A DNA stretch of 64,000 nt from an uncultured beta proteobacterium (lineage in GTDB: Bacteria > Pseudomonadota > Gammaproteobacteria > Burkholderiales > Burkholderiaceae_C), in contig CAIVHU010000128.1 of assembly GCA_903905735.1 (NCBI GenBank), positions 62,001-126,000 of the forward strand, given 5' to 3'. Position numbers and translations under genes: made by a program. Shown in pieces: positions 640 to 56,500 of the stretch. The number at the start of each line of letters is the position of its first letter. The stretch's first letter is position 1. Under the pieces are notes generated by a model, which was given only the letters and a program-made list of their open reading frames with translations, was not told the DNA's origin and made no database searches.

Positions 640-2316
640 TCAGGCACGAAACCGGTTGGTGATGGGGTAGCGCCAGTCCTTGCCAAAGCTGCGGTGGGTC
701 ACGCGGATGCCCACTGGGGACTGTCGTCGCTTGTACTCGTTGATCTTGATGAGCCGCGTGACACGCTCCACATCGGTGCGTTCGAACCCGGCGGCGATGA
801 TGGCTTCGATGCTCTGGTCGTTTTCCATATAGCGCTCCAGAATCGCGTCCAGCACCTCGTAAGGCGGCAGGCTGTCCTGGTCGGTCTGGTCGGGGCGCAA
901 TTCGGCACTCGGCGGGCGGGTGATGATGCGCTCAGGGATCGGCTGCTGACCGGTGCCGTACGGGTCATGCAAATTGCGCCAGCGCGCCAACCGGAACACC
1001 GTGGTTTTGGCTAGGTCCTTGATCACCGCAAAGCCACCCGCCATGTCGCCATACAACGTGCAATAGCCAGTGGCCATCTCACTCTTGTTGCCAGTGGTCA
1101 ACACAATGCTGCCGAGCTTGTTGGAGAGCGCCATCAGCAGCGTGCCGCGAATGCGGGCCTGGATGTTTTCTTCGGTGGTGTCCTCAGCCATGCCCTTGAA
1201 CTCACCGGCCAGCGTCGCTTTGAAGGCTTCAAACTCGGGCACGATGGACAGCTCGTCATACCGCACGCCCAGGCGCGCCGCCATGTCACGCGCGTCAATC
1301 CAGCTGATGTCGGCCGTGTAGGGCGACGGCATCATCACCGCGCGCACCCGCTCCTTGCCCAGCGCATCGACCGCAATTGCCAGCACCAAAGCCGAATCGA
1401 TGCCGCCCGACAGCCCGAGCAGCACCGACGGGAAGCCGTTTTTGTTGATGTAGTCACGCACACCGAGCACCAGCGCGTCCCACAGGTCTTCATCGGGCGT
1501 TCTGTTTGGTGCGATCAGTGCTTTTATATTGATAGCTTCTTGCGCTTTATCTATAAGGGCTAGAAGGCAATTTTCCTTAAAACTCGGAGCGCGCCCAACC
1601 AGCGTGCCATCGACACTCAGAATGAAGGAATGACCCTCGAACACCACTTCGTCCTGCCCACCCACCAAGTGCGCGTAAACCAGTGGCAGGCCGCAGTCGA
1701 GCACGCGCGCGCGCATCATCTGCTCGCGCTCCAGACCCTTGCCCACATGAAACGGCGAGGCGTTGATGACCGCCAACAGCTCGGCACCGGCCTCACGCGT
1801 CTGGCGCGCCGGGGCCTCAAACCAGGCATCTTCACAAATCAGGAGGCCGACTTTGACCGTATTGCCCGGTTCACCGGCCTCAAAAACGCAAACATCCTGC
1901 CCGGGCGTGAAGTAGCGGCGTTCATCAAACACCTGGTAATTGGGCAACTCGCGCTTGGCATAGGTGGCCACCACCTGCCCTTCACGCAGCACGCTGGCAG
2001 CATTGAAGCGCTGCTGCACCGCCACCGAGCGGGTGCGGCTGTCGCCGCCTGTCGGGTGGCCCACGACCACCGCGAGGTCTTTCAACGGAGCCAACGCCGC
2101 CGCCACGGCTTTCACGGCATCATCACATGCAGAAATGAACGCGTGGCGTAAAAAAAGGTCTTCTGCGGCGTAGCCACAAATCGACAGCTCGGGTGTCAGC
2201 ACCAGACGTGCACCCTGCTGGTAAGCGTCTTGCGCCGCCTGAATGATTTTTTGCGAGTTACCCGCCAGATCGCCCACCACCAGGTTAAGTTGGGCAATAC
2301 AGAGTTTGAGCGTCAT
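640..2316 (-). CDS. nadE: Glutamine-hydrolysing NAD+ synthase
   Basis: Nitrilase domain plus LGLSGGIDSALVLAIAVDALG PP-loop; carries a repeat-derived insert near residue 250. Confidence 0.93.
   Translation of the reverse strand: MTLKLCIAQLNLVVGDLAGNSQKIIQAAQDAYQQGARLVLTPELSICGYAAEDLFLRHAFISACDDAVKAVAAALAPLKDLAVVVGHPTGGDSRTRSVAVQQRFNAASVLREGQVVATYAKRELPNYQVFDERRYFTPGQDVCVFEAGEPGNTVKVGLLICEDAWFEAPARQTREAGAELLAVINASPFHVGKGLEREQMMRARVLDCGLPLVYAHLVGGQDEVVFEGHSFILSVDGTLVGRAPSFKENCLLALIDKAQEAINIKALIAPNRTPDEDLWDALVLGVRDYINKNGFPSVLLGLSGGIDSALVLAIAVDALGKERVRAVMMPSPYTADISWIDARDMAARLGVRYDELSIVPEFEAFKATLAGEFKGMAEDTTEENIQARIRGTLLMALSNKLGSIVLTTGNKSEMATGYCTLYGDMAGGFAVIKDLAKTTVFRLARWRNLHDPYGTGQQPIPERIITRPPSAELRPDQTDQDSLPPYEVLDAILERYMENDQSIEAIIAAGFERTDVERVTRLIKINEYKRRQSPVGIRVTHRSFGKDWRYPITNRFRA
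1521..1575 (+). repeat. Dispersed mini-repeat copy inside nadE
   Basis: cttttatattgatagcttcttgcgctttatctataagggctagaaggcaatttt; encodes ENCLLALIDKAQEAINIKA on the gene strand. Confidence 0.85.
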
Positions 2317-2349
2317 GAAAAGGTCAGTGCAATGAGGGGAAAAGTGCCA

Positions 2350-3618
2350 ATGTCAGCGTCAAATGATTATGTCATTCGGGTGGTGGATTCGCCCTTGCAA
2401 GTGGATGCCAGCGCCTGGGATGCCTTGCTGCTGACGCAGAGCCAGCCCACGCCCTTCATGCGCCACGCTTTTTTGAGCGCCTTGCACACCACCGGCTGCG
2501 CCACGACGGCGACGGGTTGGACGCCAAGATTCTTTCTGCTGGAGCGCCAGGGTGAGCTGCAAGCTGCCTGCGCGATCTACATCAAGTCGCACTCGCAGGG
2601 TGAATTTGTCTTTGACTGGGGTTGGGCGCGCGCCTACCACCAGCACGGGCTGTCGTATCACCCCAAAGCCGTGTGCGCAGTGCCGTTCATCCCGGTGCCG
2701 GGCAGCCGGCTGCTGGCGCACACGCCTGAGGATCGGCTGTTGCTGGTCAAAACTTTGCTGGACTGGTGCGCGGCCAACCAGCTCACCGGCTTGCACGCCC
2801 TGTTTGCCAGCGACGACGATGTGACCGCGCTCACCCAGGCGGGCATGTTGCTACGCCACACCATCCAGTTTCACTGGTCCAACAGCCCGAGCGGCTACGC
2901 CAGTTTTGACGACTTCCTGGCCAGCCTGTCACAAGAAAAGCGCAAGAAAATCCGCCAGGAGCGGCGAAAGGTGGCTGCTGCTGGAGTGACTTTTCGGGTG
3001 ATGCAGAGCACGGAAATCACCAAGGCGGACTGGGACTTTTTCTACCAGTGTTACGAGCGCACCTATCTGGAGCATGGCAACCCGCCCTACTTCAACCGCG
3101 CCTTCTACACGCGCATGGCAAGCGACATGCCTGAAGACTGGGTACTTTTCATTGCCGAACAGAATGGTCAACCGATTGCTTCAAGTTTGCTAGCTATCAA
3201 CGCAAGCAGCGTAAGGGCAGGAGGACTAAAAGGCATTGAACTCCCTGAATTGGCAGGCACTTCTGGAGACGCAGAATCAGCCACCACACCAGACGCGGGT
3301 GTGACCGGGCGAGTGGCCTACGGTCGCTATTGGGGTGCACTGAAACGGGTGGATTGTCTGCACTTTGAAGCCTGTTATTACCAGCCGCTGCAATGGTGCA
3401 TCAAGCACGGCTACCAGCGTTTTGAGGGCGGGGCGCAGGGCGAGCACAAATTGGCTCGCGCCCTGCTGCCGGTGACCACCACCAGCGCCCACTGGCTGGC
3501 ACATCCGCAGTTTTTTGCGGCGGTGGACAACTTTTTGACCCAGGAGCGTGAGGGGATCGGGCAGTATGTGGGTGAACTGGAGCGACACAGCCCGTTCAAG
3601 GCGGCTGCCGACCGATGA
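2350..3618 (+). CDS. GNAT/FemAB-like (DUF482, peptidogalycan biosynthesis-type) protein
   Basis: YGRYWGAL...LHFEACYYQPLQWCIKHGYQRFEGGAQGEHKLARALLPV motif; start chosen at MSASNDYV. Confidence 0.8.
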   Translation: MSASNDYVIRVVDSPLQVDASAWDALLLTQSQPTPFMRHAFLSALHTTGCATTATGWTPRFFLLERQGELQAACAIYIKSHSQGEFVFDWGWARAYHQHGLSYHPKAVCAVPFIPVPGSRLLAHTPEDRLLLVKTLLDWCAANQLTGLHALFASDDDVTALTQAGMLLRHTIQFHWSNSPSGYASFDDFLASLSQEKRKKIRQERRKVAAAGVTFRVMQSTEITKADWDFFYQCYERTYLEHGNPPYFNRAFYTRMASDMPEDWVLFIAEQNGQPIASSLLAINASSVRAGGLKGIELPELAGTSGDAESATTPDAGVTGRVAYGRYWGALKRVDCLHFEACYYQPLQWCIKHGYQRFEGGAQGEHKLARALLPVTTTSAHWLAHPQFFAAVDNFLTQEREGIGQYVGELERHSPFKAAADR

Positions 3619-3683
3619 AGTCTCAGGTCTTGGGTGGCAGCGGATGGGGACTTTGGCGGCAAAGGCCGTAGCACGAAGGACGG

Positions 3684-3755
3684 CGTGGCACTCAGCGCGG
3701 TGAGGTCAAGGAGGAGCCCGCAGGGCGGGGGACACGAACGGCGCTGAGTGCCACG
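3684..3755. repeat. Inverted repeat / REP-like element
   Basis: Perfect 15-bp arms CGTGGCACTCAGCGC (3684-3698) and GCGCTGAGTGCCACG (3741-3755) between convergent genes. Confidence 0.7.
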
Positions 3756-3795
3756 TCGGCCTGCGTCCCGCAGTAACCAACGCGGGCAGTGCGAC

Positions 3796-4650: not shown

Positions 4651-4775
4651 GCCAACCGCCTTTCTTTCCTTACACCATATGCAGATTCACGCCACCAGTT
4701 TAGGCCACACGCACCTGCCGCCAAAAATCGCTGCCCAACGAAAAGCGCCTGCCGTGTCACCACAGGCAGGCGCTT

Positions 4776-4833
4776 AGATACTATCTATTCGCTAGCTACC
4801 AGCCCTTTTTGCGAAAGGGCTAGAGGCCAATTT
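4776..4833 (+). repeat. Dispersed mini-repeat copy, intergenic, with hairpin AGCCCTTT-TTGCG-AAAGGGCT
   Basis: tactatctattcgctagctaccagccctttttgcgaaagggctagaggccaattt, downstream of ppa. Confidence 0.85.
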
Positions 4834-4841
4834 AGCATCAA

Positions 4842-5378
4842 TTATTCGTGGGCCTTCTGGTAGTTGGCAATGCCTTCCAGAATTTCCTGCTTGGCGGCTT
4901 CCGGGCCTTCCCAACCCAAAATCTTGACCCACTTGTTGGCTTCCAGATCCTTGTAGTGCTCAAAGAAGTGGGCGATGGTTTTCAGGCGCACCGGGCTCAG
5001 GTCTTCGGGTTTTTGCCAGCGGGTGTAGAGCGACAAAATCTTGTCGACCGGCACCGCCAGCACCTTGCCGTCCATGCCGGCTTCGTCTTCCATTTTCAAA
5101 ATACCGATGGCACGGCAGGTCACCACCACGCCGGGGATCAGCGGCACCGGGGTGATCACCAGCACATCCACCGGGTCACCGTCACCGCTGATGGTCTGCG
5201 GCACATACCCATAGTTGGTGGGGTAGTGCATGGCTGTGCTCATGAAGCGGTCCACAAAAATCGCGTGTGTTTCGTGATCCACCTCGTACTTGACCGGGTC
5301 GGCGTTCATCGGGATTTCGATGATCACGTTGAAGGCTTCGGGGACGTTCTTACCAGGAGTGACGTTATCTAATGACAT
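4842..5378 (-). CDS. ppa: Inorganic pyrophosphatase (soluble, family I)
   Basis: 178 aa; [22 protein letters not shown]. Confidence 0.95.
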
Positions 5379-5530
5379 GGTGTGTGTGCGGTTTGGGTTG
5401 AATCAGGGACATTCCGGATTAACTCTGATTTTACTGACTCGCCCCTTGCTGGGGCCAAAAAACCGCAATTTTGGCGTTACAGTCTGCCCGTTGGCCAACC
5501 GCCACCAGTGGCACCTTACCGGTGCTGGGG

Positions 5531-5581: not shown

Positions 5582-5606
5582 GAAGCAACTTCAGGAGATT
5601 TTTCAC

Positions 5607-9895: not shown

Positions 9896-11256
9896 AAACC
9901 CTGGACCAGATTGCCGCCGAACTCGCGGGCTACGACCCCCAAGCGCTGAGCGCTGACGCCGTGAACGCTTTTTTGGCCCGACTGGTCGAGCCGGTGACCG
10001 ATTTCGAACATGTTGGCATTTTTCAGGCGTTGGGCCGGGTGCTGGCGGTGGATGTCATCTCGCCCATCAGCGTGCCTCCACACGACAACTCAGCCATGGA
10101 TGGCTATGCTTTTGATGGCAGCCAGCTCAATATGGACAAGGGCTTGCGTCTGAAAGTGCTCGGTACAGCGCTCGCGGGCAAAGCCTGGTCGGGTAGCGTG
10201 CAAAGCGGCGAATGTGTCAAGGTCATGACCGGCGCGGTGATGCCTCCAGGCCTCAACACCGTGGTGCCGCAGGAGTTTGTCACACTGGCCGCATCCAACG
10301 CATCCAACGCAGAGACGGCGTCGTACGTCACCATCCCGGCTGGCATCGTCCGCCTCGGGGACAACCGCCGTCACCTCGGTGAAGACCTGATGCAGGGTCA
10401 GCCAGCGCTACCAAACGGGGAGCTGCTCACACCCGCAGCACTTGGGCTGGTGGCCAGTTTGGGCATAAAAACGGTGCCAGTGCTGCGCCGCCTGAAAGTG
10501 GCCTACTTTTCCACCGGCAACGAGATTCTGAGCCTGGGTGAGCCACCGCGTGAAGGCGCGGTGTATGACAGCAACCGCTACACCGTGTTTGGCCTGCTGA
10601 CCCGGCTGGGCTGCGAGGTGATCGACATGGGTGTGGTGCGCGATGAGCCTGCCGAGTTGCAGGCGGCTTTTGTGCAGGCCGCGTTGCAGGCTGACGCCAT
10701 CATCACCAGCGGCGGCGTGAGTGTGGGCGAGGCAGACTACACCAAGGCGATGATGAAACAGTTGGGTGACGTGGCCTTCTGGCGCATCGCCATGCGGCCC
10801 GGCCGACCCATGGCTGTGGGTCAGATTTTCAGAGACAAATTGGCTTCCAGCCCTTTTGCAGCAAGGGCAAGCAGCTCTGGAAATCCTATCAAACAGGAGG
10901 GCTCGGCGATTCTCTTCGGGCTGCCGGGCAACCCGGTGGCAGTGATGGTGACCTTCCTGGCCTTTGTGCGCCCCGCCCTGCTTCAGATGATGGGTTGCCG
11001 CACCAGCGCCCCGCCGCTGCTGCAAGCCAAAAGCCAGGAGCCGCTGCGCAAAAAACCGGGCCGCACCGAGTACCAGCGCGGCATTGTCAGCAACGCGCCA
11101 GACGGCTCTCTGCAGGTCAAAACCACCGGCAACCAGGGCTCGGGCGTGCTCAGCTCCATGGTGCAGGCCAACGGACTGATCGTGCTGCACCACGCGCAGG
11201 GCCAGGTGGCCATCGGCGATACGGTCGATGTGATGATGTTTGACGGGGTGATTTAA
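9892..11256 (+). CDS. moeA: Molybdopterin molybdotransferase MoeA
   Basis: [41 protein letters not shown]; repeat-derived insert at about 10835-10894. Confidence 0.94.
10835..10894 (-). repeat. Dispersed mini-repeat copy inside moeA
   Basis: acaaattggcttccagcccttttgcagcaagggcaagcagctctggaaatcctatcaaa; encodes [20 protein letters not shown]. Confidence 0.7.
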
Positions 11257-20145: not shown

Positions 20146-20185
20146 GCGCGCAGTGAGGCGCTCGTCCCGAGCCGCATTACTTCTT

Positions 20186-20232
20186 TTTCAATAGCTGCCT
20201 GCCCTTGTATTTAAAGGGATGGAGACCTTTTT
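20186..20232 (+). repeat. Dispersed mini-repeat copy (degenerate), intergenic
   Basis: aatagctgcctgcccttgtatttaaagggatggagacc. Confidence 0.6.
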
Positions 20233-20250
20233 CTTCTACAAAGGATTGTC

Positions 20251-24746: not shown

Positions 24747-25418
24747 TCAGTCTCTAAAAAGCTCAAGTATGCGCCAGCCGCGATCCAGTGCAATCGCTCG
24801 CAGGCGATCATCCGGGTTGGTGGCGACGGGGTGGGTGACATGCTCCAGCAGCGGCAGGTCGTTGATGGAATCGGAGTAAAACGTGCTTTCCACATCCGCC
24901 CAATCCAGCTGGCGGCTGGCCAGCCACTGCTGCACGCGGGCCACCTTGCCTTCGCGAAACGACGGTGTGCCATCAATTTCACCGGTGAACCAGCCGGTGG
25001 CGGGGTCGCGTACCAGGTTGATGGCAATCAGTTCGGACACGCCAAAGGCCGCAGCAATCGGGCGTGTGACGAATTCGTTGGTGGCGGTGACGATCACCAC
25101 TGCATCGCCTGCGGCCTGGTGGGCGCGGACCAGCTCCAGTGCCTGCGGTTGTATGGCTTTTTGCACCACAGCCCTCATGAAATCTGCGTGAGAAGCTTCT
25201 GATTTTGTAGCACCCTGCTGACGCACGGCGCGCGTGGCAAAACGCACATAGTCATGGATGTCGAGCGTGCCGGCCTTGTACTGGTGGTAATACGCGTCGT
25301 TTTTGCGGGCAAAGTCTGCCGCGTCGTTCCAGCCCAGGGCGGTGGTGAACACGCCCCATTCGTAGTCGGAGTCAACGGGGATCAGGGTGTGGTCGAGGTC
25401 AAAAAGAGCCAGCTTCAC
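24747..25418 (-). CDS. HAD family (SerB-like, HAD-IB) hydrolase
   Basis: MKLALFDLDHTLIPVDSDYEW...FYSDSINDLPLLEHVTHPVATNPDDRL. Confidence 0.9.
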   Translation of the reverse strand: MKLALFDLDHTLIPVDSDYEWGVFTTALGWNDAADFARKNDAYYHQYKAGTLDIHDYVRFATRAVRQQGATKSEASHADFMRAVVQKAIQPQALELVRAHQAAGDAVVIVTATNEFVTRPIAAAFGVSELIAINLVRDPATGWFTGEIDGTPSFREGKVARVQQWLASRQLDWADVESTFYSDSINDLPLLEHVTHPVATNPDDRLRAIALDRGWRILELFRD

Positions 25419-28366: not shown

Positions 28367-28405
28367 GGTTGCTGGCCTGCTGATGTTCGACTTGGCCGAC
28401 TCTTG

Positions 28406-28460
28406 GTGCTATTAACTTGATATCTGCTTGCCCTTTATCTATAAGGGCTAGAGGCCAACA
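28406..28460 (+). repeat. Dispersed mini-repeat copy, intergenic
   Basis: tgctattaacttgatatctgcttgccctttatctataagggctagaggccaa, with GCCCTT/AAGGGC stem. Confidence 0.85.
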
Positions 28461-28895
28461 ATACAACTAACTTTGATTTACTGCCAGGCGGGCGGTGGGG
28501 TTACCGTTCTCCGGCTTGCTCGCGGGTGACGGAGTGGGTTATATGCCGCTCAAGTGTCGCCAATGACCTCGGTGCGCCGCCCGCAACGCCACGCAAATGA
28601 GGCCAGCGCCCGACAACCCCGCCACCCACCTCCAACGGGGTTGGAAAGTGATGTTGGGCTCAGGTTCAGGCCGAAAGCGGCTGTGATGGCAACCGAAGTG
28701 CCTACACCAAAGCGATCATCCAAATTATCTCTTTCGGGTGACTTTTCGGCCATGAGACAATCGGTGCTGCCGTCATTGACATCCAAGGTTGCTGCCGCCA
28801 CTTTTTGCGACAAGCAACACTTCGTTCTCAAGCGGTCGATTTCCAGAAAAAGTCGATGAGGCTGGTTTTCTACACGGACTTTTCTGACGGGCCCA

Positions 28896-31575: not shown

Positions 31576-34340
31576 AATATCTCCTTGAGGTTGAGCACCA
31601 TCAGCACCGATCCGTCGCCCATCAGCGCCGAGCCCGAATAGGCCCGCAAACTGCTGAGCACGCCTAGCAGCGGCTTCAGGATGATGTCGGCCGTGCCATG
31701 GAATTCGTCCACCAGCAGCCCCACGTTTTCTTCGCCCACCCGCACCACCAGCACCGCCAATTCACCCTCGTCGTTGGTCAAGGGCGGGGCGGCCAGGCTT
31801 AGCAAGGCGTTGAGCGACAGCAACGGCACAATGCGACCGCGCAGCACGGTGGCCTGGCGTTGCTTGATCAGCCGCACTGCGTTGCCGGGCACGCGCACAG
31901 TTTCCACCACCATGTCCATCGGCACACCGAACATCTGGCCGTTCGACGCAACCGTCATCACATTGGTCACTGCCATGGACAGCGGCAGGGACAGCCGCAG
32001 CGTCGTGCCCTGCCCTTTGACGCTGGCCAGCGCGATGCTGCCATTGACGCGCTCCACCGCTGTGCGCACCACGTCCATGCCAACGCCCCGGCCCGACAGG
32101 TCTGACACCACTTCGGCGGTGGAAAAACCTGCTGCAAACACCAGGTTGATGGCTTCCTGGTCGCTGATGCGATCCAGCGTGGCCTCGTCAATCAGGCCCT
32201 TCTGGTAGGCCTTTTGCTTGATGACTTCCGGGTCAATGCCTTTGCCATCGTCGCTGATTTCAATCACCACCCGGTCAGATTCCTGCTTTGCTACTATTTT
32301 CAGTGTGCCTACCGCAGGTTTACCAAGGGCTACACGCACATCTGGCATCTCAAGCCCGTGGTCCAGACTGTTGCGCACAATGTGCACCAGCGGGTCGCCC
32401 AGCGATTCGATGATGTTTTTGTCGGCAGCGGTTTCCTGGCCTTCAAGCACCAGGTTGACTTCTTTGCCCAGCTTGCGCGAGGTGTCGCGCACCAGGCGCG
32501 GAAAACGCTGAAACACAAACGACACCGGCATCATGCGCACCTGCATGATGGCATCCTGCATTTCTTCGGAAATTCGGTTGATGACGGCGTACTGCGCCTT
32601 GATCTCGCGCGACAGCTCACGCACGCCAAACACGTTTTCAGCCCGGCTGGCCAAATAGGGGATGGCATTTTTGGCCACCACCATTTCACCAATCAGGTTC
32701 ATCAGCCGGTCCACCTTGACCTGATCAACCTTGAGCGTTTTGGCGCTGTTGGCATCATCGGCACGGCGGTTCATGCGCATCTCAAATTCAGGCGGCTCAA
32801 CCGGTGTCGCTGCGTCTTTGGCTGGCTCGGTCACCTGGGCCGTTTCAGTCGCAGCGGGCTGCACCGCATCAATGGCAGATGCAACGGCACTGGGTTGGGT
32901 CAGCCCGACACCTGCCGGAAAAGCCAGCGCAAGCCACTGAGCCAGCGGCGCGGCGCTGCTGGACTGCAGCGCTTGTGCCGCAGCGGCGTTGAGTGTCACT
33001 TCTTCCGCTAAGCGGCCACAGGCGCGCAAACACCCCAGCAGCGATGCCGCCGCCGCCTTGATGCGCCCAGTCAGCCAGGCGGCATCATCGGGCAAAGCCA
33101 AAATTTCACGCTGCACCGCCAGCACATCGGCAATGGCTTGCGCTTGCACGCTAGCGGGTGCGTCTGCCACGGGTGCCATGGCCGACTCCTGCGCCGCTGT
33201 TGCTGTCACAGATCGTAGGGTTGCTACATTAATAGTAGCTTTCTGCGAAGCATCTGTAAGGGCTAGAGCCCAATTTGGCACGATAAGGGTGCGCAGCGAC
33301 TCAATCAAGGTGCGCAGTGCCACCAGGTCAACCTGTGGTGCCTCCAGCAAGGCCGAGATCCAGCGCAAGTCTGACGACAGCCACAGTGCGCTGTTGGACA
33401 GCTCCAGCATGCTGCGCACCGCACGGCGCAGGCCGGTGAGGTCATGGCGCTCCAGAAAGCCCAGCGCGTCGGCCACAAAGTCGTCATAGACCGGGCCGCC
33501 ATTCGGGTCGCCTTGCGGCAGTGCCAGGGCCAGCGGTGGCACCGCCAGAATCTGGACCTGATCGGGCACATAGCGGTAGTGTTGCTCAATGTCGGCTCGG
33601 GAGGCGGCGGACAACACGTCAAAGTCAAGCATGCAGCGGTAGGCATCCAGCTCGGCCAGCTTGGGCCAGGGCGCGCGTGCCGCCATGCCACCCCACAGCA
33701 AGCCGGGGGTCAGTTTGGCCTGATGCAGCGGGTCTTCGCCCTGAAAAAAGCACTCCTCAGACGGCTGGTAATGCACCCAGAACAAGGGCGTGCCACTTTG
33801 GGCTGCTTGCCACGCGGCCAGGCGAATGTGTTCGGGGATGCGGGCCAGTGCGGTCGGGTCGGTTTGCAGCGGCTGAACTTCAGCAGGATCACCCTCAACC
33901 TTGTCCTCTGCCAGGGGCGGCGCGGGAAGCTCACTGGCGCTGTGGCTGGTGTCATTGGCGCCAATCAAGGCGCGCAGGCTGCGGGCCAGCGCGGCGGCAT
34001 CGGTGACCATGCCTGCGGGCATGGGGCGCTCAGCCTCAATGTCATCGCAGAGCATGCCGACAAAGTCCATGGCATCGAGCAGGCGGTCGGCCAGCGCTTG
34101 CGAATAATGAACACGGCCGTTGCGCACCGCGTCCATCAGGTCTTCGCCGGCGTGCAACACCCGCGTCATCTCGGGAAATTCGAACAAGCCGCTGTTGCCC
34201 TTGAGGGTGTGCACCACGCGAAACAACTGCGTCATCAGATCCTGGTCATCGGGCGCGTCTTCAAGTTGCATCAGCTTTTCGCCAATGCCTTGCAGCGCCT
34301 CACGCGACTCGCTTAAAAACTGCTCCAGCAAGGCATTCAT
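31572..34340 (-). CDS. cheA: Chemotaxis histidine kinase CheA
   Basis: Hpt LFRVVHTLKGNSGLFEF; dimerisation VDRLMNLIGEMVVAKN; HATPase HIVRNSLDHGLE, ISDDGKGID, DLSGRGVGMDVV; C-terminal CheW-like domain. Confidence 0.95.
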   Translation of the reverse strand: MNALLEQFLSESREALQGIGEKLMQLEDAPDDQDLMTQLFRVVHTLKGNSGLFEFPEMTRVLHAGEDLMDAVRNGRVHYSQALADRLLDAMDFVGMLCDDIEAERPMPAGMVTDAAALARSLRALIGANDTSHSASELPAPPLAEDKVEGDPAEVQPLQTDPTALARIPEHIRLAAWQAAQSGTPLFWVHYQPSEECFFQGEDPLHQAKLTPGLLWGGMAARAPWPKLAELDAYRCMLDFDVLSAASRADIEQHYRYVPDQVQILAVPPLALALPQGDPNGGPVYDDFVADALGFLERHDLTGLRRAVRSMLELSNSALWLSSDLRWISALLEAPQVDLVALRTLIESLRTLIVPNWALALTDASQKATINVATLRSVTATAAQESAMAPVADAPASVQAQAIADVLAVQREILALPDDAAWLTGRIKAAAASLLGCLRACGRLAEEVTLNAAAAQALQSSSAAPLAQWLALAFPAGVGLTQPSAVASAIDAVQPAATETAQVTEPAKDAATPVEPPEFEMRMNRRADDANSAKTLKVDQVKVDRLMNLIGEMVVAKNAIPYLASRAENVFGVRELSREIKAQYAVINRISEEMQDAIMQVRMMPVSFVFQRFPRLVRDTSRKLGKEVNLVLEGQETAADKNIIESLGDPLVHIVRNSLDHGLEMPDVRVALGKPAVGTLKIVAKQESDRVVIEISDDGKGIDPEVIKQKAYQKGLIDEATLDRISDQEAINLVFAAGFSTAEVVSDLSGRGVGMDVVRTAVERVNGSIALASVKGQGTTLRLSLPLSMAVTNVMTVASNGQMFGVPMDMVVETVRVPGNAVRLIKQRQATVLRGRIVPLLSLNALLSLAAPPLTNDEGELAVLVVRVGEENVGLLVDEFHGTADIILKPLLGVLSSLRAYSGSALMGDGSVLMVLNLKEIL
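33220..33277 (+). repeat. Dispersed mini-repeat copy inside cheA
   Basis: ttgctacattaatagtagctttctgcgaagcatctgtaagggctagagcccaattt; encodes PNWALALTDASQKATINVAT on the gene strand. Confidence 0.8.
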
Positions 34341-42067: not shown

Positions 42068-42263
42068 GTAGGTTTTGGGAGTCAGTGGAAGCGGCCAAAT
42101 GTACGCGCGCCTGACTGATGCGGTTTTATTGGGGGTCTTGTCCGCTGGGGAGTCGCACGGCTGTCCGGCGGGTACTTGCTGACCTGCGCCCACAGGCTTT
42201 GCCAGGGACGGCATTGACCAAGTCGTGCAGAATCCAGGAGAAAGCCAAGCCTTGATCATTACA

Positions 42264-42314
42264 AAAAGCATAGCTACTTATTCATATATAAAAAGGGCTA
42301 GAGGCCAATTTAGC
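42264..42314 (+). repeat. Dispersed mini-repeat copy, intergenic
   Basis: aaaagcatagctacttattcatatataaaaagggctagaggccaattt. Confidence 0.8.
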
Positions 42315-42381
42315 TTGCAAGATGCACCATCACCAGCCTCACGAATTGGCCGGTACGACCCACTTCCACCCAGGTATTGAC

Positions 42382-43077
42382 ATGACCAACGCCTTCATTC
42401 AGAAAAACGCACCCCTGTTGGCGCTGTGCCTGAGCAGCGCTGCCCACGCGGCCAGCCCCGGTTTTGATTGCGCCAAGGTGCGCCAACCAAGTACCGAGGC
42501 CATCGTCTGCGTCGACGTTGAGTTGTCCAAGCTGGACCGCCAGATGGCCCAGGTGTACGCCGCCGCGCTCAAAAAGGCGCACAACCAGCGCCCGCCCCTG
42601 CTCAAAGTCGAGCAGCGCGGCTGGATCAAGGGCCGCAACGACTGCTGGAAAAGCGCCGACCGGCACCAGTGCATCGCCGAGTCTTACCGCCTGCGCATCG
42701 CCGAGCTGCAGGCACGCTACCGGCTGATACCACCCATGGCCACGGTGCGTTATGCCTGCGACGGCAACCCGGCCAACGAGGTGGTGGCCACGTTTTTCAA
42801 CACCAACCCGGCCACGCTGATCGCCGAGTGGGGTGACTCGGTGTCATTCATGGTGCAGCAACGCAGCGCCAGCGGTGCGCGCTATCAGGGGCGCAATGAG
42901 TCTCTCTGGGAGCACCAGGGTGAAGCGAAGGTGGTCTGGGGCTACCAGACGCCGGAAATGCGCTGCCGCCCCCTGTGCGCTAAGCCAAATCCCGATCAGT
43001 GCGTGGCGCGGCGCAACTCTGCCGCGCGGGCAGCAATGGCCGGGCGGTCAAAGGTGGCACCGGCGTTGGCCAGGTAG
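42382..43077 (+). CDS. Secreted DUF1311 (LprI-like) plus MliC-like lysozyme-inhibitor protein
   Basis: Signal peptide; CxxxxxxxEAIVCVDVELSKLDRQM; VRYACDGNPANEVVATFFNTNPATLIAEWGD. Confidence 0.75.
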   Translation: MTNAFIQKNAPLLALCLSSAAHAASPGFDCAKVRQPSTEAIVCVDVELSKLDRQMAQVYAAALKKAHNQRPPLLKVEQRGWIKGRNDCWKSADRHQCIAESYRLRIAELQARYRLIPPMATVRYACDGNPANEVVATFFNTNPATLIAEWGDSVSFMVQQRSASGARYQGRNESLWEHQGEAKVVWGYQTPEMRCRPLCAKPNPDQCVARRNSAARAAMAGRSKVAPALAR

Positions 43078-43859: not shown

Positions 43860-45425
43860 CTATCGGCGCAGCAATTGGCGCAATTGCAATCCCGCCACGG
43901 TAATCGCTCCCAAATAAATAGCTGCTGACGCAGACAGAATAAGGGCTATGAGCCAAACTCTCTTTAACTTCTCGGCGCGCAAGGCGGTCCAGTCCCAGTG
44001 GCCATTGGCCCACATCAAGAAAACTGCCAGCAAAACACAGCCCGCCAGCACTTGTAAAAGAAAGATGCCCCAGCCGGGTTCGGGCTTGTAACTGCCGCGC
44101 CGCACCAGCCCCACCAACAGCCAGGCTGCGTTGACCATCGCACCAATGCCGATCGACAGCGTCAGCGCAGCATGGGCAAAAATGGGCACCAGAAACAGGT
44201 TAAGCAACTGGGTGAACACCAGCACGCCGACGGCGACACGTACCGGAGTTTTGGTGTCCTGGCTGGCGTAGTAGCCCGGTGCCAGAACCTTGATGGCCAC
44301 AATGCCGATCAACCCGGTGCCCCAGCCCATCAGCGCATAGGTGACTTGCTGCACGTCAAAGGCGCTCATCGCCCCGTAGTGGTACAGCACGGCCACCAGC
44401 GGTGTCGGAAACACCAGCAAGGCCACCGCGCAAGGCACGGACGTCACCGCCACCAGCCGCAAACCCCAGTCCAGCATGCCGGAATATCTGGCGCTGTCGC
44501 CACTGGCACGCGCGCTGGCCAGCTGCGGCATCAGTACCACGCCCATGGCCACGCCCAGCAATGCGGTGGGAAACTCCATGAGCCGGTCAGCGTAAGTGAT
44601 CCAGCTCACGCTGCCCGGACGCAAATGCGAGGCAATCTGCGTGTTGATCAGCATCGAGATATGCGCCACGCTCACCCCCAGCAGCGCCGGACCCATCAGG
44701 CGCAGAATGTTTTGAGTCTCCGTGCAGGCCCAGGCCACGCGCAGCGCCGACCAGCGCCAGCTCATGCGCGGATGCAGATTCAGTCGCCTCAGGGCCCACC
44801 ACTGCACCCCCAACTGCGCTGCACCACCCAGCAGCACGCCGCCCGCCAGGGCGTAAATCGGCTCGATGCCTATGGCTTTGAACCATGGCGCGACCAGCCA
44901 AGCGGCCGCAATCATGCACACATTGAGCAACACCGGCGTGACTGCGGGCACAGCAAAACGCCGCCAGGTGTTGAGTACCCCGGCACCCAGGGCCACCAGC
45001 GACATGAAGGCAATGTAGGGAAACATCCAGCGCGTCATGACGACCGCAACATCAAAACCATGCGGGTCTTGTTTCAGGCCGCTGGCCATGACCCACACCA
45101 AGCCCGGCGCGCCCAGCACACCCAGCACGCTCAAGCCCAACAAAGCCCAGACCAGCACCGTGGCCACCCGGTCAATCAGCACCCGTGTGGCAGCCTCACC
45201 TTGCTGCGCCTTGGTTGCAGCCAAGACCGGCACAAAAGCCTGACTGAAGGCACCTTCAGCAAAAAAGCGCCGAAACAGATTGGGAATGCGAAACGCGACG
45301 TTGAACGCGTCGGTGAGCGCCGAGGCACCAAAGGTCGACGCAATCAGCAGCTCGCGCACCAGTCCGGCAATACGCGACAACAGGGTCAACAGGGAGACGA
45401 CGGAGGCAGATTTGAAGAGGCTCAC
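43860..45425 (-). CDS. murJ: Lipid II flippase MurJ
   Basis: SLFKSASVVSLLTLLSRIAGLVRELLIASTFGASALTDAFNVAFRIPNLFRRFFAEGAFSQAFVPVLA; GTG start inferred. Confidence 0.94.
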   Translation of the reverse strand: MSLFKSASVVSLLTLLSRIAGLVRELLIASTFGASALTDAFNVAFRIPNLFRRFFAEGAFSQAFVPVLAATKAQQGEAATRVLIDRVATVLVWALLGLSVLGVLGAPGLVWVMASGLKQDPHGFDVAVVMTRWMFPYIAFMSLVALGAGVLNTWRRFAVPAVTPVLLNVCMIAAAWLVAPWFKAIGIEPIYALAGGVLLGGAAQLGVQWWALRRLNLHPRMSWRWSALRVAWACTETQNILRLMGPALLGVSVAHISMLINTQIASHLRPGSVSWITYADRLMEFPTALLGVAMGVVLMPQLASARASGDSARYSGMLDWGLRLVAVTSVPCAVALLVFPTPLVAVLYHYGAMSAFDVQQVTYALMGWGTGLIGIVAIKVLAPGYYASQDTKTPVRVAVGVLVFTQLLNLFLVPIFAHAALTLSIGIGAMVNAAWLLVGLVRRGSYKPEPGWGIFLLQVLAGCVLLAVFLMWANGHWDWTALRAEKLKRVWLIALILSASAAIYLGAITVAGLQLRQLLRR

Positions 45426-46589: not shown

Positions 46590-47810
46590 ATGACCGCAAG
46601 CAGCCCTTTCATCGAAGCCGCCTCCCCGCACGTGATGAACACCTATGGGCGACTGCCCATCGCCCTCTCTCACGGCCAGGGTTGCCGGGTGTGGGATGTG
46701 AATGGCAAGGAATATCTGGACGCGCTGGGCGGCATTGCGGTCAACACGCTGGGTCACAACCACCCGCAGCTGGTGCCCGCGCTCCAAGACCAGATCAGCA
46801 AAATCATCCACAGCTGCAATTACTACCACGTGCCCAACCAGGAGGTGCTGGCGAAAAAGCTGGTGGAGCTCTCAGGCATGACCAATGTATTTTTCTGTTC
46901 CACCGGCTTGGAGGCCAACGAAGCAGCACTGAAGCTGGCGCGAAAGTTTGGCCATGACAAGGGCATTGACCGGCCGGAGATCGTGGTTTACGAAAAAGCC
47001 TTCCATGGCCGCAGCATCGCCACCCTGAGCGCCACGGGCAACCCCAAGATCCAGGCCGGATTTGGCCCGCTGGTGGAAGGCTTCATCCGCGTCCCCATCA
47101 ACAACATGGCGGCCCTGCGCGCGGCCACCCTGGGCAACCGCAACGTGGTCGCGGTGTTTTTTGAGGCCATTCAGGGTGAAGGCGGCATCAACACGATGGA
47201 TCTCGACTACCTGCGCGACCTGCGCCAACTTTGCAATGAGCGGGACTGGCTGATGATGATTGACGAAGTGCAATGCGGCATGGGCCGCACCGGCAAGTGG
47301 TTTGCGCACCAGTGGGCGGGCATCGTGCCCGACGTGATGCCGCTGGCCAAGGGCTTGGGCTCGGGCGTGCCGGTAGGTGCGGTAGTAGCCGGCCCCAAAG
47401 CCGCCAATATCTTCAAGCCCGGCAACCACGGCACCACTTTTGGCGGCAACCCCCTGGCCATGCGTGCCGGTGTTGAAACCATCCGCATCATGGAAGAAGA
47501 CGGCCTGCTGGCCAATGCCGCCACGGTGGGCGCGCACCTGAAAGCCGGTCTGGAAGCCGCCCTGTCAGCTGAGCTGGCAGACGGCAGCGTCAAGGAAATC
47601 CGCGGCCAGGGTTTGATGCTGGGCATTGACCTGGCCAAACCTTGCGGTGCCCTCACCCAGCGTGCGGCCGATGCCGGTTTGCTCATCAGCGTGACAGCCG
47701 ACAGCGTGGTGCGGTTGGTACCGCCGCTGATCTTGAGCTGCGCCGAGGCGGACGAGATCGTCGCCAAACTGTGCCCCCTGATTTCTGCCCTGTTGAAGGA
47801 AACCCCATGA
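46590..47810 (+). CDS. argD: Acetylornithine/succinyldiaminopimelate transaminase family
   Basis: NTYGRLPIALSHGQGCRVWDVNGKEYLDALGGIAVNTLGHNHP; MMIDEVQCGMGRTGKWFAHQ; GNHGTTFGGNPLAMRAG. Confidence 0.94.
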   Translation: MTASSPFIEAASPHVMNTYGRLPIALSHGQGCRVWDVNGKEYLDALGGIAVNTLGHNHPQLVPALQDQISKIIHSCNYYHVPNQEVLAKKLVELSGMTNVFFCSTGLEANEAALKLARKFGHDKGIDRPEIVVYEKAFHGRSIATLSATGNPKIQAGFGPLVEGFIRVPINNMAALRAATLGNRNVVAVFFEAIQGEGGINTMDLDYLRDLRQLCNERDWLMMIDEVQCGMGRTGKWFAHQWAGIVPDVMPLAKGLGSGVPVGAVVAGPKAANIFKPGNHGTTFGGNPLAMRAGVETIRIMEEDGLLANAATVGAHLKAGLEAALSAELADGSVKEIRGQGLMLGIDLAKPCGALTQRAADAGLLISVTADSVVRLVPPLILSCAEADEIVAKLCPLISALLKETP

Positions 47811-48784
47811 ACCCGGTCAGTTTTGGCATCCCCAGCACTATCCCAAAAGGCGCGCCTCCCGTGCGGCACTATCTGCAGTTCTCGGACTTGACCGCTGACG
47901 AATACGCCTACCTGCTGCAACGCGCCGCCTTCATCAAGGCCAAGTTCAAAACCTTCACCCGCCACCAGCCGCTGGTGGACCGCACGTTGGCCATGATTTT
48001 CGAGAAAGCCTCCACCCGCACCCGCGTGAGTTTTGAGGCCGGCATGTACCAGTTGGGCGGCAGCGTGGTGCACCTGACCACCGGCGACAGCCAGTTGGGC
48101 CGCGCCGAGCCGATTGAAGACAGCGCCCGCGTCATCAGCCGCATGGCTGACCTGGTGATGATCCGCACCTACGAGCAAACCAAGATCGAGCGTTTTGCCG
48201 ACTATTCCCGCGTGCCGGTCATCAACGGCCTGACCAACGAGTTCCACCCGTGCCAGATTCTGGCTGACATCTTCACCTTCATTGAGCATCGCGGCCCGAT
48301 CCAGGGCAAAACCGTTGCTTGGGTGGGTGACGGCAACAACATGGCCAACACCTGGCTGCAAGCCGCCACACTGCTGGATTTCAAGGTGAATGTCAGCACG
48401 CCCAGCGGCTACGAAGTGAATGAAAAAATAGCCTCTGGCCCAAATGGCATAAGCGCTGGTAGCTATGAAACTTATAGTAATCCGCTGGATGCCTGTCGGG
48501 GTGCCGATCTGGTCACCACCGATGTCTGGACCAGCATGGGATATGAAGCGGAGAACGAAGTGCGCAAGCAGGCCTTTGCCGCCTGGCGCGTCAGCGCGGA
48601 CATGATGGCGGTGGCCAAACCGGACGCACTGTTCATGCATTGCCTGCCCGCTCATCGGGGTGAAGAGGTGGATGCCGATGTGATGGACGGCCCCCAAAGC
48701 GTGGTCTGGGACGAAGCCGAAAACCGCATGCATGTGCAAAAAGCGCTGATGGAATTCCTGTTGCTGGGCCGCCAGCCTGACTGA
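47807..48784 (+). CDS. argF: Ornithine carbamoyltransferase
   Basis: FEKASTRTRVSFEAGMYQLGG; TNEFHPCQILADIFT; MHCLPAHRGEEVDADVMDG; start overlaps argD stop. Confidence 0.95.
   Translation: MNPVSFGIPSTIPKGAPPVRHYLQFSDLTADEYAYLLQRAAFIKAKFKTFTRHQPLVDRTLAMIFEKASTRTRVSFEAGMYQLGGSVVHLTTGDSQLGRAEPIEDSARVISRMADLVMIRTYEQTKIERFADYSRVPVINGLTNEFHPCQILADIFTFIEHRGPIQGKTVAWVGDGNNMANTWLQAATLLDFKVNVSTPSGYEVNEKIASGPNGISAGSYETYSNPLDACRGADLVTTDVWTSMGYEAENEVRKQAFAAWRVSADMMAVAKPDALFMHCLPAHRGEEVDADVMDGPQSVVWDEAENRMHVQKALMEFLLLGRQPD
48421..48480 (-). repeat. Dispersed mini-repeat copy (degenerate) inside argF
   Basis: aaaaaatagcctctggcccaaatggcataagcgctggtagctatgaaacttatagtaa; encodes IASGPNGISAGSYETYSN. Confidence 0.6.
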
Positions 48785-51491: not shown

Positions 51492-51602
51492 ATAAGCGGT
51501 TTTGACGCGTGACTTTCTTCAAAGACAAGCTTTTGCCTTATGAGGCCAAGGCTGTGATCGCTCGCTCAGTGCCCGAGCAGCAATGGGGCTGAGATACAAG
51601 AA

Positions 51603-51655
51603 CAAATTGGCCTCCAGCCCTTATAGATCAAAGCTAGCAGCTATTTTTTATCTAG
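51603..51655 (-). repeat. Dispersed mini-repeat copy, intergenic
   Basis: caaattggcctccagcccttatagatcaaagctagcagctattttttatct. Confidence 0.85.
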
Positions 51656-51662
51656 CATAATG

Positions 51663-52886: not shown

Positions 52887-52997
52887 AGCAAACCTTCAAC
52901 GACTCGATATACAGCGGGCGATTGTCGGCAAACTTGCATGCTATTGGCTGACAAGTGGTCAAAAATATTGCCTAACGGGCTGATTTACACTCCTGCC

Positions 52998-53444
52998 ATG
53001 GATGAAACAAGAAAACAAATGTTGCTGATCCGACTCCTGTATGTGAGCCGGGCAGTGGGGCCGCAAACGACGGCGGTAACTGACTCGATCCTGTCGGTCG
53101 CATTGGGGGCCAACCGGGCGCGCGGCATCACTGGCGCGCTGTGCCAGGGACAAGGGCTGTACCTGCAGGTGCTCGAGGGCGAGCGCAGTGTGATCAACCG
53201 CCTGTACAACCGCATCACGCAAGACCGCCACCACCAGGATGTGCAACTGCTGGTGCTCGAAGAAATCACCCAGCGCCGCTACGCCGATTGGGCCATGGCG
53301 CATGTGCAGCTGTCGGAAGACGACCCGATGATCCAGCTCAAACACCCGGAGTTTGACCCGTATTCGGCACCCGGCCAGCAGATGATGAAGATGGTCGATG
53401 AACTGTTTTCCACCGGCAACCGCATCCGCAAGACCTCGGTGTAA
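52998..53444 (+). CDS. BLUF-domain blue-light sensor
   Basis: LIRLLYVSRA; GANRARGITGALCQGQGLYLQVLEGERSVINRLYNRITQDRHH; RRYADWAMAHV. Confidence 0.92.
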   Translation: MDETRKQMLLIRLLYVSRAVGPQTTAVTDSILSVALGANRARGITGALCQGQGLYLQVLEGERSVINRLYNRITQDRHHQDVQLLVLEEITQRRYADWAMAHVQLSEDDPMIQLKHPEFDPYSAPGQQMMKMVDELFSTGNRIRKTSV

Positions 53445-53473
53445 GCTGGCTCCGGTCGCCGGTTATTCCTGAA

Positions 53474-53520
53474 AAGATAGCACTTAGCCCATATATTCAT
53501 AGGGCTAGACGGGTTTTTCA
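53474..53520 (+). repeat. Dispersed mini-repeat copy (degenerate), intergenic
   Basis: aagatagcacttagcccatatattcatagggctagacgggttttt. Confidence 0.65.
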
Positions 53521-53555
53521 TCATTGGCTGGCGTGCCTGGCCAGCGTGCCTTGCC

Positions 53556-56500
53556 TCACACCAGCTGCGCCCAGGCTTTCTCCAGCCGTTTCACACTCAC
53601 CGGTTGCGGCGTGCGCAACTCTTGTGCAAAGAAGCTCACGCGTAGTTCTTCCAGCAGCCAGCGAAATTCTTGCAGTCGGTCATCCACCACGCCTTTGCGC
53701 TCGGCCACCAGCCGCCAGTAGCGCTGCTCCAGCGGTTGCAGCTCTTTCAGGCGGGCGCTGTCGCGGGCAGGGTCGGCACGGTATTTGTCCAGCCGGGCGG
53801 TGATGGCTTTCTGGTAGCGGGCAAAGTGCTGCAGGCTGGGCCACGGGGTGACGCTAAAAAACATCTTCGGCATCAATCGTGATAGCTGCTGGGCTGCGTC
53901 CGCCGTGGCTTCCAGGGCATTTTTGGTGTCCTTGATTTTGCGGGCGGCGACTGCATATTCGCTCAAAATGACTGCGGCCAAGCGGGCGACTTCGGTGCAA
54001 ATCAGGGTTAGCCGCCCTCGCCCTTCGTCCACGCGCCGCTTGAAGGCAAATTCATCGGTAGGCAGCGGGTCGAGCAAAAAAGCCCGGTCCAGCGCCACCG
54101 AGATGATCTGCTCGCGCAACTCTTCCAGCGTGCCGCCCGTCCCTGAGCCATCCGGCGCTTTGCCGACCTGCATGTAAGCCACGGCCATTTTTTGCAGGTC
54201 GGGCACGTTTTTTTCAAGGTATTTGAGCGCGTCCTTGATCTGCAGCGCAAACAGGCGGCGCAGACCGGCGCGGTGTTTGGCGGCGGCCACCTCGGGCTCG
54301 TCAAACACCTCGATGGTGACGGCATCACCCGCGTCCAGCAGCGCCGGGTAACCGATCAGCGTCTGGCCACCCTTTTGAATCTCAAGCAGCTCGGGCAGCT
54401 CGCCAAAGGTCCAGGCGGTGTGGCGCTGGCTGGTGTTGGGCTGAACAGTGTTTGCTACTTTATTCGACGCTGCTTGCGTTTGATTGACGAGGGCTAAAGC
54501 CTGTTTTGATGGAAAACCTGCGGCAGAATGTCTGGCGGATGCACCTGCTTGACTATTGATAGCTACCCGCCATTGATCCGTGAGGGCTGGAGCCTGATTT
54601 TCCTTATAAAAACCGGTTGACGCGGTTCCCGCGCCCTGCCCCATCTTCAGAGAAGCCAGCGCCTGAAACGCACCGCGCGCCTGCGCACCCAACTCGGCTT
54701 TGAGGGCACCCAGATTGCGCCCGTGGCCCAACTGGCGGCCATGTTCGTCCACCACCCGGAAGTTCATGAAAAAGTGCGGCTGCAACATGTCGACCTTGAT
54801 GTCGGCACGCGCCACATCCACAGTCGTGGCCAGACGCACCAGTTTCAACACCGCCTCGATCAATGAGCCGTGGCCGAACAAAGCTGGCTCATTCAACTGC
54901 TCAGCCATCTTGTGCGCCGACTCGGGCAGCGGCACCAACCGCGAACGCGGGCGCTGGTGCAGGGTCTTGATCAGCGCCTGAATCTTGTCTTTCAACATGC
55001 CGGGCACCAGCCATTCACAACGCTCCTCATTGACCTGATTCAGCACAAAAATCGGCACCGTCACGGTCAGGCCGTCCTTGGGGTCACCCGGCTCATGCAG
55101 GTAAGTGGCAGCGCAGTCGACCCCGCCCAGACGCACGGTTTTGGGGAACGAATGGGTGGTGATGCCCGCCGCCTCGTGGCGCATCAACTCCTCTTTGGTC
55201 AGCAGCAACAGCGTGGGATTGATCTTGGTCGCGTCGCGGTACCAGGCCTCAAAGGTAAAGCCACTGCACACCTCTGCAGGCAACTGCTGGTCGTAAAAGG
55301 CGTAGATCAGCTCGTCGTCCACCAGCACGTCTTGCCGACGTGCCTTATGTTCCAGGTCTTCCACCTGCTTGATCAGCTTCTGGTTCGCGGCCAAGAACGG
55401 CAGCTTGGTCTCCCACTGGCCGCCCACCAGCGCCTCGCGGATGAAGATTTCACGCGCGCCAGGCAAATCGACGCGGCTGTAGTTCACGCGTCGGCCACTG
55501 TAGATCACTATGCCATACAGCGTGGCACGCTCCAGCGCGTTCACCTCGGCGACCTTTTTTTCCCAATGCGGGTCGAGCAACTGCTTCTTTAACAAATGCG
55601 CGCCGACCTGCTCCAGCCACTGCGGCTCAATCGCCGCGATGCCGCGGCCAAATAGCCGGGTGGTTTCCACCAGCTCGGCCGCCACGATCCATCGGCCCGG
55701 CTTTTTGGTCAAGTGTGCGCCAGTGTGCGGGTAAAACTTGATAGCGCGCGCCCCAAGGTATTCGACGCTCGGACCCTTGTCGCCGTCCGCTTCGAGCTTG
55801 AAACCGATGTTGCCCAGCAGCCCGGCCAGCATCGCCAGATGCAATTGTTCGTAGCTGGCGGGCGCCGTGTTGATGCGCCATTTGTGCTCGGCCACCACGG
55901 TGTGGAGCTGGCTGTAAATGTCGCGCCACTCGCGCACCCGGCGCATGCTGACGAAGTTTTGCCGCAACAGTTGCTCGTATTGGCGGTTTGACAGCTTGTG
56001 CTGCGGCGGTGCGACTGGTGCACCCTGCCCTTTTTGCAAGGCAGCCGCCACGGCGCTGGGGGCTTGCCCGCCACGCGCGGTTTCCAGCCACTTCCACAGC
56101 TTGAGGTAGCCCGAAAACTCACTCTTTTCGTCATCAAACTTGGCGTGCGCCTGATCCGCCTGCTGCTGCGCTTCCATGGGCCGGTCACGCACATCCTGCA
56201 CGCTCAGCGCCGAGGCGATCACCAGCACCTCGTCCAGCGCTTCCCTGGAGCGAGCTTCCAGAATCATGCGGCCCACGCGCGGGTCAAGCGGCAATTTGGC
56301 CAGCTCGCTGCCCATCCCGGTCAGCTCGTTGGCATCATCGACCGCACCGAGTTCGTTCAACAACTGGTAACCATCGGCAATGGCCCGACCAGAGGGTTTT
56401 TCGAGGAATGGGAAATCTTCCACCATGCCCAGGCGCAGCGACTTCATGCGCAAAATCACCCCGGCCAGCGAGCTTCGCAAGATTTCGGGGTCGGTGAACT

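What the first reader, a model, noticed from the sequence alone, without database searches (positions are those of the whole stretch)
1521..54605. Dispersed ~50-60 bp element invades both intergenic regions and coding sequences in frame
Seen directly: a recurring sequence with approximate consensus (TTTGCTAYTAAATT)GATAGCTGCTTGCGCTTTATCTATAAGGGCTAGAGGCCAATTT. Copies at about 1521, 4776, 10835(rev), 20186, 28406, 33220, 42264, 48421(rev), 51603(rev), 53474, 54450 and 54553; weaker ones at 3183, 25164(rev) and 43913. About half lie within genes and none breaks the reading frame. Several copies keep a short stem in the core (GCCCTT/AAGGGC at 28429; AGCCCTTT/AAAGGGCT at 4800) with differing sequence, suggesting a palindromic core. 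The closest established parallel is the Rickettsia palindromic elements that insert in frame in proteins. I cannot say whether this family is already catalogued for Comamonadaceae.
Basis: partly seen in the sequence, partly recalled or inferred. Interest (0 to 1): 0.85.

Follow-up and report, generated by a model that had tools for sequence, protein, structure and literature searches.

The report
Dispersed repeat that overwrites coding sequence
Rhodoferax-type bacteria carry roughly a thousand copies of a 70-letter DNA repeat that also sits inside essential genes, and comparison with relatives shows that it often arrives by overwriting the resident DNA without changing its length, so genes stay in frame, which is not how repeats of this kind are thought to move.

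Summary
A ~66-70 nt AT-rich element with sharp ends and no fixed target occurs about once per 5.5 kb of the host genome (158 copies in 864 kb, roughly 960 per genome), with 0 hits in reversed sequence and one weak hit in 420 kb of a copy-free congener. It is chromosomal and patchy: 0 to 235 strict copies within one genus, 61 of 201 genomes of the family. 59 of 158 sampled copies lie wholly inside genes (NadE, MoeA, OTC, UvrA, RecG, RecC, HrpA), mostly in the two reading frames that the consensus leaves open. "In-frame insertion" is only partly right. At 17 in-gene sites with an outgroup, 2 are full insertions (22-24 codons), 5 partial, and 10 changed protein length by 0-3 residues: the element replaced resident codons. 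The NadE tract matches the consensus at 73% in the host, 27-41% in zero/low-copy congeners. The best candidate mobiliser is a near-universal single-copy HUH/Y1 (TIRYT/RAYT-class) transposase with an element abutting its stop codon in 13 of 16 element-rich and 0 of 13 poor genomes; suggestive, not proven. No held paper was found to name the repeat. A new variant of the REP/RPE kind with unexpected overwriting behaviour.

The parts
1513..1583 (+). element copy inside NadE (gene on - strand), length-preserving replacement
   Evidence: E 9e-16; same protein length in 30 congeners and near-same in PDB outgroups (47; 50; 52)
3174..3224 (+). weak copy inside FemAB-like gene 2230-3618, in a region whose length varies between species in steps of 3 nt
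   Evidence: E 1e-3; in frame (98); length series
4774..4842 (+). copy immediately 3' of the inorganic pyrophosphatase gene (4842-5378, -)
   Evidence: 29
   Evidence: 27
10827..10895 (-). copy inside MoeA; clean in-frame insertion of 72 nt against five empty sites
   Evidence: 53
20173..20241 (+). intergenic copy
25170..25215 (-). diverged copy inside HAD hydrolase gene, sense frame
   Evidence: 28
28402..28467 (+). intergenic copy, near-consensus core
   Evidence: 27
33218..33281 (+). copy inside CheA gene (- strand)
   Evidence: 28
42250..42319 (+). copy between a Crp-type regulator gene and the ORF at 42310-42666
   Evidence: 29
43899..43949 (+). diverged copy near the C-terminus of MurJ (- strand)
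   Evidence: 28
48418..48484 (-). copy inside ornithine carbamoyltransferase (47807-48784, +); only 3 residues longer there than the closest solved OTC
   Evidence: 83
51600..51658 (-). intergenic copy
53461..53509 (+). weak copy 3' of the HrpA-like gene
   Evidence: E 0.029
54447..54518 (+). copy inside HrpA-like helicase (53556-57719, -)
   Evidence: 28
54546..54611 (+). second copy inside the same HrpA-like helicase, 27 nt from the first
   Evidence: 28

Best explanation
It is a selfish, non-coding, REP-like repeat family of Comamonadaceae, ~70 nt, with two or three potential small stem-loops, kept alive by copying from other copies. SHOWN: high copy number, sharp ends, no target-site duplication, patchy species distribution, homogeneous copies within a genome but different diagnostic bases between genomes, in-frame persistence in genes, and arrival at many sites with loss of resident DNA rather than simple addition. 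INFERRED: the copy moves as folded single-stranded DNA released or processed by the resident HUH/Y1 transposase of the TIRYT (RAYT-like) class, whose 3' flank carries the element, and is pasted in by annealing at a gap or replication fork so that a variable stretch of resident DNA, from none to the full element length, is lost. Selection then keeps only frame-preserving and length-tolerable outcomes.
For: Copy number and controls (26; 27; 57). Patchy distribution with essentially no control matches (30). Replacement: the NadE tract has identical length in every congener including zero-copy ones, and differs by 3 and 1 residues in two outgroup structures (47; 50; 52); PWM score +79 bits in host versus -30 to -73 in zero/low-copy orthologues, consensus identity 73% versus 27-41%; permease site 67% versus 27% with no length change; other sites (58) and outgroup structures for OTC (+3 residues), carboxyltransferase (0), PGI (-1), shikimate dehydrogenase (+5), DapF (+11) (87; 88; 89; 90). 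Full insertions at MoeA (72 nt, five empty sites) and RlmJ (58). No TSD signal. Transposase: single weak-PF01797 Y1 gene in nearly all congeners; element abuts its stop codon in 13 of 16 rich and 0 of 13 poor genomes, p=1e-5 uncorrected for kinship (94); same position enriched in the named set drawn from several genera, 4 hits versus 0.29 expected (94), and seen in G121, G139, G100; the G/C type next to the transposase agrees with the commoner genome-wide type wherever both could be typed (42; 43; G211 is mixed 5:4); second copies upstream of the gene in G246, G255, G243, G011 (74).
Against: The transposase is just as present in copy-free genomes, 66 of 66 near-complete genomes of the family sample, so presence does not predict copies. 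About 15% of host genes carry or touch an element and sites are inherited between species (NadE, MoeA), so the transposase-linked copy could be an ordinary inherited site, and its matching base type could reflect ordinary within-genome homogenisation. G137 has 127 strict copies although the first histidine of its HUH motif reads Q (37; 39). No movement was observed; the near-sister pair G204/G254 (93% identity) shared nearly all comparable sites (63). No pairing constraint within the genome (81). Insertion followed by compensating deletion would also leave unchanged length.
Confidence: 0.55

Rival explanations
1. Ordinary MITE/REP-type insertion: every copy adds ~70 bp, as assumed for Rickettsia palindromic elements, and proteins later lose neighbouring residues so that length returns to normal.
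For: MoeA and RlmJ are clean insertions with empty sites in relatives (58); in-gene length differences are multiples of three (58).
Against: Ten of 17 testable sites show a net change of 0-3 residues, and several are exactly 0 (NadE, carboxyltransferase, permease), including positions inside folded domains (52; 58; 75; 86; 89). Repeated deletions restoring the exact length would be needed.
Confidence: 0.25
2. In-place molecular drive or selection like DNA uptake sequences: point mutations are biased towards the motif at sites that already resemble it, without a copied DNA segment.
For: Length-preserving sites; a continuum of scores; mutase site where mostly synonymous changes move towards the element; CCA-enzyme site where the conserved RRDxTINxIA motif coincides with the element start; mild excess similarity of NadE orthologues to the motif.
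Against: The model holds about 0.75 bits at each of 75 positions, far more than known uptake sequences need (own knowledge); the permease orthologue starts at chance identity and NadE orthologues near it; full insertions occur.
Confidence: 0.12
3. Ectopic gene conversion by general recombination between dispersed copies and look-alike sites, with no dedicated transposase; the copy next to the transposase is just another site.
For: Length-preserving tracts; genome-wide homogenisation of the diagnostic base, also at the shared MoeA site (43; 53); transposase presence is uninformative.
Against: Targets such as the permease show no starting similarity; does not explain clean insertions or the cross-genus excess at the transposase.
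Confidence: 0.2
4. A conserved regulatory RNA or terminator family.
For: Stem-loops in the consensus and enrichment at gene 3' ends.
Against: No Rfam match, no covariation (81), both orientations, 59 copies inside genes, absent from close relatives.
Confidence: 0.03

Closest known systems
TIR families of TIRYT transposases (Di Nocera et al. 2013, PMC3733652; subclass 2.1 in PMC6006769)
   Same: Same kind of transposase: Y1/HUH protein flanked by GGGGTCAGA-type repeats fitting the published GGGGWSAS consensus; moderately abundant dispersed repeats are reported near some TIRYT genes.
   Different: The dispersed element is not the GGGGTCAGA repeat itself but a separate ~70-nt sequence abutting the stop codon. 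PMC6006769 reports that no REP-like sequence was found near subclass 2.1 genes. Subclass membership was not tested by phylogeny here.
REP elements and REPINs with RAYTs (PMC2817692, PMC3116915)
   Same: Hundreds of palindrome-bearing short copies, denser outside genes and at gene 3' ends, patchy distribution, sequence co-varying with the copy at a resident single-copy Y1 transposase.
   Different: No GTAG or CGTC tag, longer, no inverted doublet unit, direct rather than inverted copies where two flank the gene, over a third of sampled copies inside genes, and replacement of resident DNA.
Rickettsia palindromic elements (RPE; summarised in PMC3733652)
   Same: Short palindrome-bearing repeats persisting in frame in many unrelated, often essential proteins including DNA repair genes.
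   Different: RPEs are described as inserted peptides; here most testable sites show little or no added length. No sequence comparison with RPEs was made.
DNA uptake sequences of Haemophilus/Neisseria (own knowledge)
   Same: Many copies inside genes in preferred frames without inserted length.
   Different: Those are 10-30 bp motifs with lower information; this one also inserts.

Membership tests
REP element (RAYT-associated) | 20-40 bp palindrome with GTAG or CGTC tag at one end | tested here: not met
   Element is ~66-70 nt; consensus has no such tag at its ends (81)
REP element (RAYT-associated) | Resident Y1 transposase gene flanked by copies of the repeat in inverted orientation | tested here: not met
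   Copy at 3' side in 13 of 16 rich genomes; where an upstream copy exists (G246, G255, G243) it has the same orientation as the downstream one (94)
REP element (RAYT-associated) | Repeat sequence co-varies with the copy at the transposase | tested here: met
   G-type/C-type agreement in typeable genomes (42; 43); confounded by within-genome homogenisation
REP element (RAYT-associated) | Hundreds of copies, predominantly outside genes | tested here: met
   0.86 per kb non-coding versus 0.08 per kb coding
REP element (RAYT-associated) | Stem maintained by compensatory changes | tested here: not met
   No excess pairing over column expectation within the host genome (81)
REP element (RAYT-associated) | Single-stranded repeat bound and cleaved by the transposase | not testable with these tools
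   Needs biochemistry
TIRYT transposase | Y1/HUH domain with catalytic tyrosine | tested here: met
   PF01797 E ~1e-11 to 1e-12, NCBIfam REP_Tyr_transpos 79-86 bits around its cut-off of 80 (73); H-x-H motif in all aligned rows but G137
TIRYT transposase | Flanking inverted GGGGWSAS repeats | tested here: met
   AATTGGGGTCAGATTCCAATT-type upstream in many genomes and TAATTGGAATCTGACCCC downstream (37; 41)
TIRYT transposase (subclass 2.1) | C-terminal helix-turn-helix domain | tested here: inconclusive
   No second Pfam domain up to E 1
Rickettsia palindromic element | In-frame addition of a repeat-encoded peptide | tested here: inconclusive
   Met at MoeA and RlmJ; not met at 10 of 17 sites (58; 86; 89; 90)
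Rickettsia palindromic element | Sequence relationship to RPE families | not tested
   No RPE sequences were compared
Classical MITE | Terminal inverted repeats and target-site duplication | tested here: not met
   No TSD signal; flanks unconserved and no terminal inverted repeats evident

The most novel reading that the evidence does not exclude
A dispersed bacterial element that spreads by overwriting: a ~70-nt single-stranded copy, made by a resident HUH transposase, is annealed into chromosomal DNA like a natural recombineering oligonucleotide and replaces a stretch of resident sequence of similar length, so that it can colonise essential genes without frameshift or added length.
Probability: 0.3. 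Interest if true: 0.85.

Novelty: new variant of a known kind. Interest (0 to 1): 0.62.

Why it matters
[quoted passage not shown] Here is a family with about a thousand copies, a candidate enzyme, copy-free congeners, and sites where the outcome (full insertion, partial or no length change) can be read against relatives. If overwriting is right, it explains how a repeat can sit in frame in essential proteins, and it is a source of multi-residue protein change that needs no insertion.

Tried and rejected
Regulatory RNA: no Rfam match and no covariation (15; 18; 81). Phage or plasmid element: no match in 50,697 phage records, two in 72,556 plasmids, one exact core in the viral contigs (92; 93). 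Target-site duplication: none beyond scan noise. Transposase presence as predictor of copies: uninformative because nearly universal. Classical IS200-type genes (strong PF01797 hits): not concentrated near elements, one neighbouring copy only (L074; 32). Near-sister pair G204/G254 for fresh copies: synteny broke off and the comparable sites were shared (63). The idea that targets must resemble the element beforehand is weak: some do (75), the permease site does not.

Full report
OBSERVATION. The repeat is real. Fifteen copies in the window are found by a profile built from a gapless 75-column alignment of 34 copies (21; 27). The strict 3' core AAGGGCTAGAGGCCAATTT with up to two mismatches occurs 138 times in the host assembly, with no match to the reversed pattern. 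In 864 kb of that assembly the full profile finds 161 hits at E<=0.01 and none in reversed sequence, 158 after merging; extrapolated to 5.26 Mb this is about 960. The sampled contigs are large ones, many chosen because they held hits, so the figure is approximate. A zero-copy congener gives no hit below 1e-3 in 420 kb.

ANATOMY. Conservation starts near column 6 and ends near column 73, and flanks carry no information, so the element is ~66-70 nt with no evident target. The consensus can fold into stem-loops GCTAT-N7-ATAGC and TAGCGCTT-N7-AAGCGCTA and, weakly, a third. Within the host genome paired columns pair no more than their composition predicts (81). Individual copies therefore look like decaying copies of a palindromic source rather than maintained structures. 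No target-site duplication stands out.

WHERE COPIES LIE. By a simple codon-usage gene caller: 59 inside genes, 44 across gene 3' ends, 46 intergenic, 9 across 5' ends; per kb the non-coding density is about ten times the coding density (82). The caller misses some genes (for example the FemAB-like gene at 2230-3618; 98), so the in-gene count is if anything low. In-gene copies favour the two frames open in the consensus, reading ...PLALIDKAQAAI... antisense and ...IAACALSIRARGQF... sense: 41 of 59, p=1.6e-8 (82). This is what survival of frame-open copies predicts. Hosts include NadE, MoeA, CheA, OTC, HrpA, UvrA, RecG, a UvrD-like helicase-nuclease, RecC, DapF, UbiA, PGI, FtsJ (83; 84; 85).

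DISTRIBUTION. In 201 genomes of the family 61 match a strict pattern; within the host's genus 45 of 61 match, with counts from 0 to 235 (30). On a NadE tree element-rich and element-poor genomes need at least 7 changes of state by parsimony, though well supported branches force only 2. The genus is a Rhodoferax-type one by the named relatives. The element is nearly absent from plasmids, phages and viral contigs (92; 93).

INSERTION OR REPLACEMENT. At MoeA five zero/low-copy genomes show the empty site: the host carries 72 nt more, in frame (53). At NadE the copy is just as strong (E 9e-16), yet all aligned congeners, including zero-copy ones, have the same protein length there, and two outgroup structures (4f4h, 5kha) differ by only 3 and 1 residues (47; 50; 52). 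The same tract matches the element consensus at 73% in the host and 27-41% in zero/low-copy congeners. A systematic comparison with two such genomes (G203, G236, 420 kb each) and a few smaller pieces gave 14 in-gene sites: net difference 0 at seven, 9 nt at two, 30-42 nt at three, 66-72 nt at two (58). Distant solved structures add three further sites and support others: OTC +3 residues, shikimate dehydrogenase +5, DapF +11; carboxyltransferase 0, PGI -1 (87; 88; 89; 90). Taken together, of 17 sites 10 changed by 0-3 residues, 5 by 5-14 and 2 by 22-24. Caveats: the three weakest zero-change sites (GpsA, mutase, MobA) could partly be native look-alikes, and at the HAD and GpsA sites the relative compared itself looks partly element-like. 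NadE, OTC, PGI, permease and carboxyltransferase are not so easily dismissed. The direct reading is that arrival of the element is usually accompanied by loss of resident DNA. Insertion followed by compensating deletion is the main alternative.

WHAT MOVES IT. Nearly every genome of the genus has one ~234-residue Y1/HUH gene in recurring gene neighbourhoods, flanked by GGGGTCAGA-type repeats (36; 37; 39), a near-threshold match to NCBIfam REP_Tyr_transpos. It fits the TIRYT description of PMC3733652. The ~50 nt between its stop codon and a conserved TGTCCC motif are the element, antisense, in 13 of 16 element-rich genomes and in none of 13 poor ones, where the spacer is mostly of similar length but different sequence (94). 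In other genera the same position is enriched (4 versus 0.29 expected; 74; 94). The base that separates two element types (AAGGGC and AAGCGC) has the same state next to the transposase as in the commoner genome-wide type wherever both could be read (42; 43). Against this, the gene is as common in copy-free genomes, other sites such as MoeA are also shared and homogenised, and G137 has many copies with a damaged HUH motif (39). I give the enzyme link about even odds.

KNOWN OR NEW. Searches of the held papers for core sequences found no description of the repeat (76); the single hit was an unrelated paper on a human enzyme. REPs inside genes, RPEs and TIR repeats are known (PMC3733652; 77), so the kind is known. 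The size, the absence of REP tags, the association with a TIRYT-class gene and above all the replacement behaviour set this family apart. Most subscription papers are not held, so an earlier description cannot be excluded.

Noticed in passing
L036:5165-11545: A 2126-residue UvrA-type protein carries three in-frame element copies; RecG, RecC, a UvrD-like nuclease-helicase and HrpA carry one or two each, echoing the published excess of intragenic REPs in DNA repair genes.
   Followed up: partly
L119 (G137:C47): The TIRYT-class transposase of a genome with 127 strict element copies reads SQFH where others read NHFH, so its HUH motif looks broken.
   Followed up: no
window 3174-3224 and orthologues L231-L250 near 3.5 kb: In a FemAB-like gene the element region differs between species by multiples of three over a range of about 100 nt, a hypervariable segment.
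   Followed up: partly
L055:5903-7219: In a tRNA nucleotidyltransferase the element begins inside the conserved RRDxTINxIA motif, so native and element sequence coincide.
   Followed up: partly
L176, L188, L189, L195, L199 near locus start: Several Polaromonas-type genomes share an element copy ~4.6 kb upstream of the transposase stop codon, apparently an inherited site.
   Followed up: no
L121-L200, 3' of the Y1 gene: The distance between TGTCCC and CTGACCC downstream of the transposase is 47 nt in almost all genera, an unusually fixed spacing.
   Followed up: no
L342:3001-3057: A Diaphorobacter 242-kb plasmid has an element between a TonB receptor gene and cobN, overlapping the cobN 3' end.
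   Followed up: no
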